Shown here: positions 1-9,479 of the stretch, piece after piece | Numbering within the stretch: position 1 is the stretch's first letter | Layout: every line of letters begins with the position of its first letter | Assembly: GCF_003149145.1 (NCBI RefSeq) | Contig: NZ_QGDQ01000004.1 | Location: 1-64,000 of the forward strand | Direction: 5' to 3' | Source: Quadrisphaera granulorum | GTDB taxonomy: Bacteria > Actinomycetota > Actinomycetes > Actinomycetales > Quadrisphaeraceae | DNA: 64,000 bases | The notes under the pieces: generated by a model | Database searches by the model: none | Told to the model about the DNA's origin: nothing | The model's input: only the letters and a program-made list of their open reading frames with translations | Position numbers and translations under genes: made by a program

Positions 1-96
1 GATGCTGCGTGACCGTCAGCCCTACCGCCCACGGACGACGCCGACGAGCTCTGAGGTGGCCCTGGCCGCTTGACAACGACATAGGGACACCCCCCC
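1..96 (+). mobile_element. Right end of an IS110-family element (first tandem copy, cut by window edge)
   Basis: Bases 2-95 closely match 1479-1570, which is the 3' end of the transposase in the next element plus its right terminus. Both contain TTGACA overlapping the transposase stop, then a shared terminus ending in a run of C. After the C run the two sequences diverge completely, which places the right end near 92-96. The rest of this copy lies left of the window. Confidence 0.85.
2..73 (+). CDS. IS110-family transposase, C-terminal 23 residues only
   Basis: In frame from base 2, the sequence encodes MLRDRQPYRP followed by a diverged tail ending EVALAA and TGA. It matches the last 23 residues of the intact transposase ending at 1549, differing mainly in the tail (RTTPTSSE here, QTSASSAE there). 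The two tandem copies are therefore related but not identical, and did not arise by a very recent duplication of one element. The catalytic parts lie outside the window. Confidence 0.85.
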   Translation: MLRDRQPYRPRTTPTSSEVALAA

Positions 97-100
97 CCGT

Positions 101-322
101 TACCTTCTTGATCACCCCCTCAAGGGGTGGCAGGCCACCGCCGCCGGCATGACTAACTGCCCCTGTGAACCGATGATCTGGGGGGTGTTGTCACCGGCGG
201 CGGCGGGCACCAGTGATCGCTGATAGGGACCCGTGACCTCCATCGCTGTCCGTAACGTGGCTGTGACGCGGGTGCTCCGGCTGGTCTGCCGTCACGACGC
301 CGACGACGACCAGGAGCGCGCG
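101..322 (+). ncRNA. Candidate IS110 bridge-RNA region in the left end
   Basis: IS110-group elements are known to carry a structured bridge RNA in the non-coding left end that pairs with target and donor DNA. Here the 220-bp non-coding left end holds a hairpin at 116-127 (CCCCT/AGGGG). It also holds a 10-bp perfect stem, 138-147 with 194-203, enclosing a loop of about 46 nt, which has the size and shape of a bridge-RNA loop. A sequence ATAGGGAC near 223-230 repeats one in the right end (81-88). Structure and position are seen; function is inferred from the family. Confidence 0.4.
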
Positions 323-1549
323 ATGGACCTGCACAGACCCCACGACTACGAGGTCTACTGCGGACTGGACGTGGGCAAGTCCGACCACCACGCCTGCGCC
401 CTGGACCCCGCCGGCCGCAAGATCCACGACAAGGCCCTCGCCAACGACGAAGCCGCCCTGCGCGCGGTCTTCACCAAGCTCCTCACCCGCGGCCGGGTCC
501 TGGCCGTCGTCGACCAGCCCGCCGCCATCGGCGCCCTGGCCATCGCCGTAGCCCGCGACATGGGTATCGACATCGCCTACCTGCCCGGCCTGACGATGCG
601 GCGCCTGGCCGACCTGCAGCCCGGACAGGCCAAGACCGACGCTCGCGACGCCTACGTCATCGCCGACGCCGCCCGCTCCCACCCCCACACCCTGCGACGG
701 GTCGGCACCGACGATGAGACCCTCGCCGACCTGGGCGTGCTCGCCGGCTACGACGACGACCTCGCCCAGCAGGCCACCCGCCTGACCAACCGCCTGCGCG
801 ACGCCCTCACCCACGTCCACCCCGCCCTAGAACGCCTGCTCAGCAAGCACATGGACCGCGGTGGAGTCCTGGACCTGCTCGCTGCCGCCGGCACCCCCAC
901 GGCCCTGGCAACCCTGGGTGAGCACGGCATCGCCGACCTGCTGCGGCCCCGCTCGCCGCGCCTGGCACGAACCCTGCCAGCACTGATCATCACCACCCTG
1001 ACCCAGCAGAGCGTCACCATCGCCGGCACCGCCGCCTTCAGCCGGGTCATCACCGGAGTCGCAGCTCAGCTGCGCGAGGTCCGCGACGAACGCGCCGCTC
1101 TCGCAGTCGAGCTCGAGGCGCGCCTGGAGGCCCACCCTCTTGCCGAGGTCCTGACCTCGATGCCCGGCGTCGGGGTCAGGACCGCCATCAAGATCCTCAC
1201 GATCATCGGTGACGGCAGCGCGTTCACCAGCGCCGCCCACCTGGCCTCCTACGCCGGGCTGGCGCCGGTGACCCGCAGGTCAGGCTCCTCGATCAGGGGT
1301 GAGAGCCACTCCCAACGCGGGCACCACGCGCTGAAGTCAGCGCTGTTCCTGTCGGCGTTCGCGGCGCTGGGCGACCCGGCCAGCCGGGCCTACTACGACC
1401 GCAAGCGCGCCCAGGGCAAGCTGCACAACGCCGCCCTGATCTGCCTGGCACGTCGCCGCATCGACGTCCTGTTCGCGATGCTGCGTGATCGTCAGCCCTA
1501 CCGACCGCAGACGTCCGCGAGCAGCGCAGAGGTGGCCGTGGCGGCTTGA
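323..1549 (+). CDS. IS110-family transposase (DEDD recombinase)
   Basis: This 408-residue protein is the recombinase of the element. The N-terminal DEDD RuvC-like domain opens with YCGLDVGKSDHHACALD and continues with VVDQP and KTDARDAYVIAD, supplying the acidic residues. The C-terminal Transposase_20 domain contains the helix-hairpin-helix-like MPGVGVRTA and the conserved RRSGSSIRG region that holds the serine nucleophile. Length matches the family (about 400). ATG at 323 is preferred because AGGAG lies 7 nt upstream and the protein then begins just before the conserved domain; a GTG at 233 would extend it into the structured left end. The gene looks intact, so the element may be active. Confidence 0.93.
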   Translation: MDLHRPHDYEVYCGLDVGKSDHHACALDPAGRKIHDKALANDEAALRAVFTKLLTRGRVLAVVDQPAAIGALAIAVARDMGIDIAYLPGLTMRRLADLQPGQAKTDARDAYVIADAARSHPHTLRRVGTDDETLADLGVLAGYDDDLAQQATRLTNRLRDALTHVHPALERLLSKHMDRGGVLDLLAAAGTPTALATLGEHGIADLLRPRSPRLARTLPALIITTLTQQSVTIAGTAAFSRVITGVAAQLREVRDERAALAVELEARLEAHPLAEVLTSMPGVGVRTAIKILTIIGDGSAFTSAAHLASYAGLAPVTRRSGSSIRGESHSQRGHHALKSALFLSAFAALGDPASRAYYDRKRAQGKLHNAALICLARRRIDVLFAMLRDRQPYRPQTSASSAEVAVAA

Positions 1550-1567
1550 CAACGACATAGGGACACC

Positions 1568-2161
1568 CCCCATCGCACGGTCACCCATGACGACGAACCC
1601 CTGCCCACCGACATGCCCGCCGCAGCAGCCGCCGTCGGCATCGACGTCGACCTCGACTCACCCCCGACACACCTCGCCGACGTCCCACGGCTGCTCACGC
1701 TGTGGATCGCCATCGGCGACGCGGACCTGCTCGACTCCTCCACGACGCAGGTCTTCCCGGCCGTGGACGCCGACGTCCTCGCCAGCGACCAGCCGCTCAC
1801 CGCGGAGCATCGGGCCATCGTCGTCGAGACAGCACTGCGCGGCACCATCGACGACGCCTGCCTCGACATCGACGCGGAAGACGACGCCCCCAGCCCCATG
1901 GCCATCGCCGTGCTCCCGGTGCTGTCGATGACCGCCACCGGCCACGACGTCCCCAGCGACGTCCTCGCCAACGCCGACGGCATAGCCAGTACCGGCGCGC
2001 TCGTCCAGGAGCTGCTCGACCTCGGCGTGCTCATCGCCGGCTCCCAGCCGGGCAGCGTCACGGTGAGGCCGGGTCTGGAGCAGATGCTCGCCGGGATCAC
2101 GCTGGACCTGCTCGACGACGTCACCGGCGATGACCACTGGGAGGACGACGACGAGGTGTGA
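1568..2161 (+). pseudogene. C-terminal half of an acidic-tailed family protein, interrupted by tandem IS110 elements
   Basis: Reading in frame from 1568 (PHRTVTHDDEPLPTDM...) the product aligns with residues about 200-399 of the intact paralogue at 14813-16012, which reads PHRDIDQNGLLLPTDV at the same place. Homology runs upstream of the first ATG (1613) right up to the IS terminus, so the gene was split by insertion. Its 5' half should lie left of the tandem elements. Conserved blocks are PRLL near 1685-1696, LVQELLDLGVLIAGSQPGS and VRPGLEQMLA, and an acidic tail (HWEDDDEV). No known domain is recognised. A shortened 182-residue product from ATG 1613 remains possible. Confidence 0.8.
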
Positions 2162-2197
2162 CCGGCACGGGTCGGGGCGAGACCACACCACGCTTCA

Positions 2198-2659
2198 ATG
2201 AGAACCACTATCGTTAACTCGGTGACGGCACAGCTCTCGACCGACCAGTCCCCCGAGGCCCAGCACGTAGAGGCCCAGCTTCCGGAGGACCAGCGCCGCA
2301 GCGCGGTCTTCGTCGCCGAGCGGCCCTGGGGGCAGTTCCAGCAGTTCGTGCTCAACCAGCACTGCACGGTCAAGCTCATCACCGTGGAACCCGGCCGGCG
2401 CCTGTCCCTGCAGAAGCACGCCCTGCGCGACGAGCTGTGGCAGGTGCTCGACGTCCCCCTGGACGTGCAGGTCGGCGAACGCCAGTGGACAGCGCAGGTC
2501 GGCGAGCGCATCTACACCCCCGCCGGGTCCCTGCACCGCCTGGGCAACTCCGGAACCCAGCCCGGTCGCATCCTCGAGGTCGCCTTCGGCCACTTCGACG
2601 AGCAAGACATAGTGCGCCTCCAGGACGACTACGCCCGCCCCGAGACTGACCGGGGCTGA
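2198..2659 (+). CDS. Mannose-6-phosphate isomerase, type II-like cupin protein
   Basis: This 153-residue protein is a single cupin matching the C-terminal isomerase domain of bifunctional type II PMI/GDP-mannose pyrophosphorylases. Visible family signatures are ERPWGQFQQF, VKLITVEPGRRLSLQKHALRDELWQV (metal-site His and Glu in cupin motif 1), IYTPAGSLHRLGN (cupin motif 2) and a C-terminal EVAFGHFDEQDIVRLQDDYAR. It would interconvert fructose-6-P and mannose-6-P in the cytosol, feeding GDP-mannose to glycan synthesis. No nucleotidyltransferase domain is attached. The start is uncertain: ATG 2198 has no clear ribosome site, and GTG 2222 is an alternative. Its neighbours are unrelated, so its link to the polysaccharide locus 30 kb away is only inferred. 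Confidence 0.85.
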   Translation: MRTTIVNSVTAQLSTDQSPEAQHVEAQLPEDQRRSAVFVAERPWGQFQQFVLNQHCTVKLITVEPGRRLSLQKHALRDELWQVLDVPLDVQVGERQWTAQVGERIYTPAGSLHRLGNSGTQPGRILEVAFGHFDEQDIVRLQDDYARPETDRG

Positions 2660-2661
2660 CC

Positions 2662-2933
2662 CGCTTCTCCCAGAACGCCGTCCGTAGCCACCTGCCCGTG
2701 GCTGCAGACGCGCGCATGCGTCGTCGCCCCGCCCGCAACTGCGGCAACCACCCCAACCCTGGAGCTGCTCTCGCGGCTACCGGTTCGCGAGCAGACGACC
2801 CGCGGCGCCGGTGGTGGCCCCGCTCGCCGTCGTCGTCAGTGCTGTTGCCGACCCCAATGCCTGGGGCCGCCGGAGGCACGAGGCACCAGAGTCCAGTCGC
2901 GGCGGTCGACAGCTGCGACGGGGACGACAGCAC
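2662..2933. other. Intergenic 272 bp with one copy of a recurring GTC-rich 14-mer
   Basis: No credible gene is seen between the convergent cupin and lectin genes. The sequence contains TCGCCGTCGTCGTC at 2824-2837, a motif found nine times in the window. No strong terminator hairpin was identified. Confidence 0.5.
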
Positions 2934-3917
2934 TCAGTCGATGCGGACCGTCTGGTCCCAGCAGGCCACACCGGCGTCGTAGGGGTCCAGGCCCAGCGGG
3001 TCGCCGAAGTCGAGCAGGTACTTGTCGTACTCGGCCTGCGCGACCGACCGCTGCTGGAAGGCCGAGCACCCCACGAAACCGGGCGCGCTGGTCTGACCGC
3101 TGCTCGTCCAGCGCTGGTTGGGCTTGAAGGAGTGCTGGCCGATGTCGCGGGTGGTCGCCCACGCCGCGGTGCCGTCGCGGCGGGCGACGACGGCGCTGCC
3201 GTCGTCCTGCAGCACGAAGGTGGCCCGGGAGGCGCGCCAGGTGCCCGAGTTCCACACCGCCCGCGAGCCCGCGTAGGCGACGAGGTTGCCGTCGCCCTGG
3301 AGGACCAGGCGATCCGCGCCGTAGGAGCCCGAGAAGTACAGCGGGCGCCCCTGGGGGCTGTAGAGGTCCTTCGCGCCATAGATGACGGCGTTGCCGTCGT
3401 CCTGCAGCAGCAGCCGGTACGTGCCGTTCGCCGAGGTGACCTGCTGCCCGCGGTAGAGGGCCTGCCCCGACGCCAGGCCCGTGCGGTCCCACCCGGAGTA
3501 CCAGGCAGCGGAGCCGTTGGTCCGGTAGACGACGACGTTGCCGTCGTCCTGCACCCGCAGCACAGCACCAGGGTTGCCATAGCTGCCGGCGTGCCACAGC
3601 ACCCGGCCGTCGGCGGCGTAGATGACGGCGTTGCCGTCGGGCTGCAGCACGAAGCGCGCCCCGGGGTTGCCGCCGGTGCCCGAGCGCCAGGTGGCGCGGT
3701 CGTGAGGGGCGTAGGCCACCAGGTCACCATCGGTTTGGAAGGCCAGGCCGTGGGTGCGGTTCGGGCTCATCAGCCACTGGCCCCCTGACAGCTCCTGGCC
3801 ACCGGACATCCGGTCGCCGCCCGCGGGGCTGGGCGCCGCCGAAGCGGGCGCTGCGGCGGCGAAGGCCACCAGGCAGCCGAGGGCGAGGGAGCAGATCAGA
3901 CGCACCAGCGCGGTCAT
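2934..3917 (-). CDS. Secreted bulb-type (mannose-binding) lectin-domain protein
   Basis: This 327-residue protein starts with a Sec signal peptide (hydrophobic LICSLALGCLVAFAAAAPASA, cleavage near residue 27). B-lectin repeats follow. The sugar-binding signature QxDxNxVxY appears as LQPDGNAVIY, VQDDGNVVVY and LQDDGNAVIY, a variant LQGDGNLVAY has Gly in place of Asp/Asn, and LQDDGSAVVA is degenerate. This gives roughly two three-fold beta-prism domains. The C-terminal 60 residues (GFVGCSAFQQRS to CWDQTVRID) carry two cysteines and match no domain I recognise. The protein probably binds mannose-type glycans outside the cell. GTG- and ATG-rich surroundings offer no competing start; ATG 3917 sits directly before the signal peptide. 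Confidence 0.88.
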   Translation of the reverse strand: MTALVRLICSLALGCLVAFAAAAPASAAPSPAGGDRMSGGQELSGGQWLMSPNRTHGLAFQTDGDLVAYAPHDRATWRSGTGGNPGARFVLQPDGNAVIYAADGRVLWHAGSYGNPGAVLRVQDDGNVVVYRTNGSAAWYSGWDRTGLASGQALYRGQQVTSANGTYRLLLQDDGNAVIYGAKDLYSPQGRPLYFSGSYGADRLVLQGDGNLVAYAGSRAVWNSGTWRASRATFVLQDDGSAVVARRDGTAAWATTRDIGQHSFKPNQRWTSSGQTSAPGFVGCSAFQQRSVAQAEYDKYLLDFGDPLGLDPYDAGVACWDQTVRID

Positions 3918-8976: not shown

Positions 8977-9434
8977 GTGCCTAGGCGGCGCTTCCATCGC
9001 CGGGTCCCGAACCACCGCCCCCGTCGTGTGTCTCATCGGTGGTCACCCCGCTGGCGAAGGTCACGTCGCTGCACGACACGGTGGAGACCTGGCTGACCGA
9101 AGACGCCAGCCCCGCTGGCACCGCCGACGTTGACCCCTTGCTCACCGACCTCACCGTGGCATCGCTGGGCCCGCTCACGGCGTTTCTCGTGAGCACCGAC
9201 CGGTGGACCGGCACCCAGCAAGACCTCGACGACGTGCACTCCCTGCTCGACTGCCTCTCTCCCACCGCGATGCAAGCACGCGCGCTCGCCGAGCTGACCG
9301 ACCTCGGCGTGCTCCGGGAAGGCACCACCCCGGGCAGCCTGGCGGTCACACCAGGCCTGGAAAAAGTGCTGGCAGGCCCGGCGCTCAACCTCCTGGAGGA
9401 GATCACCTTCGACGAGGTCGACGACGAGGTGTGA
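8977..9434 (+). pseudogene. Acidic-tailed family paralogue with a frameshift and two large internal deletions
   Basis: GTG 8977, preceded by GGGGGGAG, begins MPRRRFHRRVPNHRP, matching MPAKRPAHRPPNRRR of the intact copy. A frameshift near 9025-9040 moves the reading to the frame starting at GTG 9039, where TPLAKVTSLHDTVETWL matches TPLEKFRSLHEEVADWL. Compared with the 399-residue paralogue, about 70 residues are then missing, LGPLTAFLVSTDRWTG aligns, about 180 more are missing, and LTDLGVLREGTTPGSLAVTPGLEKVLA with an acidic tail (FDEVDDEV) aligns. Both deletions keep frame. A 131-residue product from GTG 9039 is possible. Confidence 0.75.
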
Positions 9435-9479
9435 CCGGCACGCACGGGCGTCCATCAGCGTGAGCAGTACGGGGCCACG

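What the first reader, a model, noticed from the sequence alone, without database searches (positions are those of the whole stretch)
1..2161. Tandem IS110 elements split a gene at a precisely readable junction
Host-gene homology resumes in frame at codon 1568, directly after the IS right end, with PHR as in the paralogue. The first element's tail differs from the second by several residues, so two distinct but related elements inserted side by side, or one duplicated long ago. IS110 tandem junctions are of interest because a bridge RNA directs site choice.
Basis: partly seen in the sequence, partly recalled or inferred. Interest (0 to 1): 0.65.

Follow-up and report, generated by a model that had tools for sequence, protein, structure and literature searches.

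The report
Two RNA-guided jumping genes stacked together
Two related copies of an RNA-guided mobile element (IS110 family) sit head to tail inside one bacterial gene of unknown function; the missing left half of the gene was found on another piece of the same draft genome, and the guide RNA's run of six Gs explains why both copies lie in a run of Cs.

Summary
Window base 1 is the first base of contig C4 of a draft genome; the contig breaks inside a multi-copy element, IS-A. Window 1-95 is the right end of IS-A. A complete second element, IS-B (96-1567), follows, then the 3' part of a gene (1568-2161). The body of IS-A is not in the assembly, so its continuity is inferred. IS-B carries an ordinary IS110 bridge RNA in its leader: covarying stems (10 of 26 pairs compensatory), a donor guide that covaries with the right end in 37 of 37 elements at two positions, and a G6 right target guide. 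About 60 relatives insert at CC followed by CCCC, so the core is CC inside a C-run and cannot be placed to the base. The joint has nine Cs, six more than one circle joint would leave, and its promoter hexamers are 24 rather than 18 bp apart. New member of a known kind; modest interest.

The parts
1..89 (+). Right end of IS-A: transposase C-terminus, stop codon and terminal RE with TTGACA at 70-75
   Evidence: Identical 95 bp at the ends of contigs C60 and C40; 86% to IS-B right end
90..98 (+). Tandem joint: nine Cs between RE-A (GACA) and LE-B (GTTACC); core CC of each element lies within it
   Evidence: Sequence and comparison of about 60 homologous ends
96..1567 (+). IS-B, complete IS110 element (flanking core CC placed at 96-97 and 1566-1567; register uncertain in the C-runs)
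   Evidence: End alignment with homologues
113..129 (+). Bridge RNA 5' hairpin
   Evidence: Alignment A1; 3 of 4 pairs show compensatory change
134..208 (+). Bridge RNA target-binding stem-loop
   Evidence: 22 pairs in three helices, 96-100% of cells paired, compensatory changes in 7 pairs
179..185 (+). Right target guide UGGGGGG (approximate limits), complementary to CCCCCCA at the host junction
   Evidence: Conserved G-run in leaders; C-run right of nearly all insertions
222..231 (+). Left donor guide, ATAGGGAC...; matches RE CATAGGGAC
   Evidence: 37 of 37 elements co-vary at two positions
252..257 (+). Right donor guide GUAACG, complementary to LE CGTTAC
   Evidence: Conserved in nearly all of 24 aligned leaders
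323..1549 (+). IS-B transposase gene, 408 aa
   Evidence: Pfam and NCBIfam IS110
1546..1565 (+). Right end of IS-B; TTGACA at 1546-1551 overlaps the stop codon
   Evidence: End alignment
1566..2161 (+). C6 right target (1566-1571) and 3' part of the interrupted gene (PHR at 1568-1576 onward); 5' part lies on contig C47

Best explanation
Two related but distinct IS110 elements, IS-A then IS-B, lie head to tail in the same orientation inside one host gene. Both carry the same RNA right target guide (six Gs), which pairs with a run of Cs next to a CC core. The run of Cs coding for the conserved Pro at S-P-H-R was the target. Shown: both gene halves, LE-A at the left border, RE-A joined to LE-B, RE-B at the right border, the bridge RNA fold, and the donor-guide match. 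Inferred: a complete IS-A fills the assembly gap; the elements arrived by two RNA-guided insertions into one C-run (or as one composite unit); the gene lost its function.
For: Contig ends C47 (gene 5' part + LE-A) and C4 (RE-A + IS-B + gene 3' part) fit each other to the codon. The paralogue and a syntenic orthologue are uninterrupted there. LE-A is distinguishable from LE-B (91%) and RE-A from RE-B (86%), so a single element does not explain the ends. Bridge RNA: 96% of cells paired against 88.6% shuffled and 45-61% when slid; 43 double-change cells against 15 expected. Donor guide and RE: G/G 23, A/A 14 at one position; A/A 28, G/G 9 at another; no mismatch. Target: CC left of the LE in 54 of 54; right-flank positions 1-6 are 85-99% C over 74 ends. 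IS-A and IS-B leaders share CTGGGGGGTGTT.
Against: No contig holds IS-A's body, so the number of elements in the gap is not proven. Three RE-A ends but only two LE-A ends are assembled. The nine-C joint has six more Cs than two clean insertions into a C6 target leave, so a longer original run, slippage or composite transposition must be assumed. No clear covariation was found between the left target guide and left flanks.
Confidence: 0.88

Rival explanations
1. The pair moved into the gene as one composite unit: excision used LE-A and RE-B, so the nine-C joint already existed elsewhere and the target here was only C6. (A rival on the history, not on the arrangement.)
For: Outer borders T-CCC-GTTACC and GACA-C6-ATCGC give exactly TCC CCC CAT CGC (S-P-H-R), the paralogue's length, with no extra Pro codons; C9 = C6 + CCC looks like a preserved older junction.
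Against: No second copy of the pair is in the genome; composite transposition in IS110 was not tested here and no report was found in the papers searched.
Confidence: 0.3
2. Assembly chimera: RE-A was wrongly joined to LE-B, and the gene holds only one element.
For: Window base 1 is a contig end inside a repeat; C4, C60 and C40 share the same 95 bp.
Against: The gene's 5' part on C47 runs into LE-A, not LE-B, while the 3' part follows RE-B, so two different elements border the gene independently of the C4 joint.
Confidence: 0.05
3. IS-B arose by duplication of IS-A in place and has diverged since.
For: Same family, same orientation, same gene.
Against: LE and RE differ by 9-14%, while IS-A copies at other sites agree to the base over the assembled ends, so IS-A spread recently and IS-B diverged long before.
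Confidence: 0.05

Closest known systems
IS110-group elements with bridge RNA, type IS621 (PMC11208160, PMC11208158)
   Same: DEDD + Transposase_20 recombinase; guide RNA in the leader upstream of the gene; target loop then donor loop; 5' side guide matches the bottom strand, 3' side guide the top strand; core dinucleotide; TTGACA in RE facing LE
   Different: Core CC instead of CT; right target guide is a run of Gs; left target seems barely specified; here two elements are stacked with a nine-C joint
ISEc21, an IS110-type element with seekRNA (PMC11187229)
   Same: Guide RNA from the non-coding region upstream of tnp; promoter formed when ends are joined
   Different: Defined target sequence; the word 'tandem' does not occur in its text

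Membership tests
IS110 family (IS110 group) | DEDD_Tnp_IS110 plus Transposase_20 recombinase | tested here: met
   Pfam 155.7 and 75 bits; NCBIfam transpos_IS110 215.5 bits against cut-off 140
IS110 family (IS110 group) | Long non-coding leader between LE and the gene, short RE (IS1111 has the reverse) | tested here: met
   About 225 nt before ATG 323, 16 nt between the stop codon and the C-run
IS110 family (IS110 group) | Leader RNA with two guide stem-loops | tested here: met
   Target stem-loop with compensatory change; donor loop by guide match only, its stem was not counted
IS110 family (IS110 group) | Donor guides match the RE and LE tips | tested here: met
   LDG-RE covariation 37 of 37 at two positions; RDG GTAACG matches CGTTAC
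IS110 family (IS110 group) | Target guides match the flanks | tested here: inconclusive
   Right guide G6 matches C6 flanks; left guide shows no convincing match
IS110 family (IS110 group) | Circular intermediate whose RE-LE joint forms a promoter | not testable with these tools
   TTGAC is near-invariant in RE; a three-C joint puts TTGACA 18 bp from TTACCT; the consensus scan found no promoter in window 1-400

The most novel reading that the evidence does not exclude
In this actinobacterial IS110 clade the guide has drifted to a nearly pure right-hand G6 rule with little left specificity. Targets are therefore C-runs, each insertion leaves a C6 beside its right end that is again a target, and elements can stack in tandem or spread C-runs.
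Probability: 0.2. Interest if true: 0.45.

Novelty: new member of a known kind. Interest (0 to 1): 0.3.

Why it matters
It is a clean natural example of guide-directed stacking of two IS110 elements, with both gene halves, both sets of ends, the joint and the guide RNA readable. The clade would suit a test of how little left-hand pairing a bridge RNA needs, and of whether the C number in the joint switches the junction promoter off.

Tried and rejected
Looked for IS-A's body in the own genome by DNA and protein: absent. Rfam: no bridge RNA family matched window 1-3000. Single-sequence folding of the leader was only weakly better than shuffles (z -1.84), so covariation was used instead. Left target guide against left flank: no convincing signal in six registers. 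Consensus promoter scan: nothing. Plasmid collection: only partial matches at 60-80% identity, mostly left ends, no record covering 80% of the joint query. Literature searches for stacked or tandem IS110 elements found no description.

Full report
Setting. The window is bases 1-64000 of contig C4 (179,752 bp) of an 86-contig, 4.88 Mb draft actinobacterial genome. Base 1 is therefore a contig end. The first 95 bases are identical to the ends of contigs C60 and C40, which continue into different flanks after the C-run. These are right ends of one multi-copy element, here IS-A. A 98-bp left end of IS-A stands at the ends of contigs C5 and C47. The body of IS-A is in no contig: a protein search finds only the IS-B transposase and a 31% relative on C6. 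The break is the usual collapse of a repeat.

The observation. Window 1-95 and 1477-1571 are two versions (86%) of the same transposase tail and right end. Between them lies a complete IS110 element, IS-B. It has a leader from about 98, a gene at 323-1549 (408 aa; DEDD_Tnp_IS110, Transposase_20, NCBIfam transpos_IS110), and a right end TTGACAACGACATAGGGACA at 1546-1565.

The refutation test. The reverse complement of C47 ends with ...LVSTGRWTGTMDDLADVRAVLDEVSPSAVQARALVEVLDRPEDPEAEAAAIAALPLTQHLVSLLRWTS and runs straight into LE-A. It is 60% identical to the paralogue at C4:14993-16009 over 139 aa. In a joint alignment the C47 half stops and the C4 half starts at the paralogue's LLRWHS|PHR. A sister-species genome (G001) has an uninterrupted orthologue, followed by the same cupin-like gene as window 2198-2659 (82-87% identity). 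So the gene was split here. The gene has no Pfam or NCBIfam name.

Order of parts. Gene 5' part | LE-A ... RE-A | C9 | LE-B ... RE-B | C6 | gene 3' part. LE-A and LE-B differ by 9% and RE-A and RE-B by 14%, so the left border (LE-A on C47) and the right border (RE-B on C4) belong to different elements. This supports two elements without relying on the C4 contig end. What fills the gap between LE-A and RE-A is inferred to be one IS-A copy of about 1.5 kb. More than one copy cannot be excluded: three RE-A ends but only two LE-A ends are assembled.

The element family. About 60 homologous loci were aligned at their ends. LE is CC|CGTTACCTT and RE is CTTGAC-N4-7-CATAG(G/A)G(A/G)CA|CC. The leader is strongly conserved (24 sequences, alignment A1). 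The consensus fold has 26 pairs, 10 with compensatory change; 96% of cells pair against 88.6% in shuffles and 45-61% when slid; 43 double-change cells against 15.2. The fold was derived from the same alignment, so the slid control favours it to some degree; the shuffle control and the double changes are the stronger evidence. The largest stem-loop (window 134-208) carries GACTAACTGCCCC on its 5' side and GATCTGGGGGGTGTTGTC on its 3' side. By position this is the target-binding loop as defined for IS621 (PMC11208160). After it come GCTGATAGGGACC (219-231) and GTAACG (252-257). The first matches the RE tip and the second is complementary to the LE tip, as left and right donor guides should be. 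Where the RE has CATAGAG or CATAGAGGC types, the leader changes in step: at two positions 37 of 37 elements agree (six elements of the CATAGGGGC type were not scored because the leader motif was not found by the pattern used). Related elements count more than once in this tally. It is direct evidence for a bridge RNA with a donor loop.

The target. Left of LE stands CC in 54 of 54. To the right of GACA the six positions are C in 85-99% of 74 ends, after which composition is near background. The conserved G-run of the leader fits this C-run as the right target guide. For IS-B the guide UGGGGGG pairs with CCCCCCA at 1566-1572. I found no convincing left target guide signal. Because core and target are all C, the exact crossover cannot be read. 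With the core set at the first CC, the empty site is TCC CCC CAT CGC = S-P-H-R, in frame and of the paralogue's length; joining at only two Cs would put the halves out of frame.

The joint. RE-A and LE-B are separated by nine Cs. A clean circle joint would have three (GACACCCGTTACC), and a single insertion into C6 would leave three at one side and six at the other. Nine equals six (a whole right target) plus three. This fits two insertions into one run of about twelve Cs (also in frame), or entry of the pair as a unit from elsewhere, or slippage. These were not separated. Other single elements have 7-11 Cs on one side, so long runs are not unusual. A junction promoter is known for joined ends in IS621 (PMC11208160). 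Here TTGACA to TTACCT would be 18 bp in a three-C joint but 24 bp in the nine-C joint, so the stacked joint is predicted to be a poor promoter. This is inference; the scan found no consensus promoter in window 1-400. For IS621 some low-frequency insertions resembled the donor sequence (PMC11208160), which offers a general route to stacking.

How common. The right-end pattern occurs at about 95 places in 43 of 396 genomes of the order. The joint pattern occurs once, here. That pattern allows only the GAC type of right end (about two thirds of them), and draft assemblies lose stacked copies, so one is a lower bound.

Verdict. The thing itself is an ordinary IS110 pair with a well-supported bridge RNA; the C-run target and the nine-C joint are the mildly unusual parts.

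Noticed in passing
L141 (contig C47), about 420-450 bp before the IS-A border on the reverse strand: The 5' part of the split gene has a frameshift at a C-run relative to its homologues; either the gene was already decaying or decayed after the insertion (or a sequencing error).
   Followed up: partly
window 9060-9440: A third, much shortened paralogue of the split gene: N-terminal and C-terminal parts fused in frame with the middle missing.
   Followed up: partly
L052 (Nocardioides MAG-46), about 2280-2320: An IS110 right end followed directly by CGTTACCTTCTCC, like the first bases of a left end, with one C and no element after it; possibly the scar of a second stacked pair.
   Followed up: partly
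G001 contigs C4, C7, C8, C19, C24: The sister-species assembly also breaks at contig ends inside a close relative of IS-A, so the element is multi-copy there too.
   Followed up: no
window 2934-3917 (-): Secreted-looking protein with about five repeats of a QxDGNxVxY type (bulb-lectin-like) motif.
   Followed up: no
L028, L032, L044, L063: Some single elements sit in very long C-runs (left plus right 16-19 Cs), more than a C6 target explains; C-runs may grow at these insertions.
   Followed up: no
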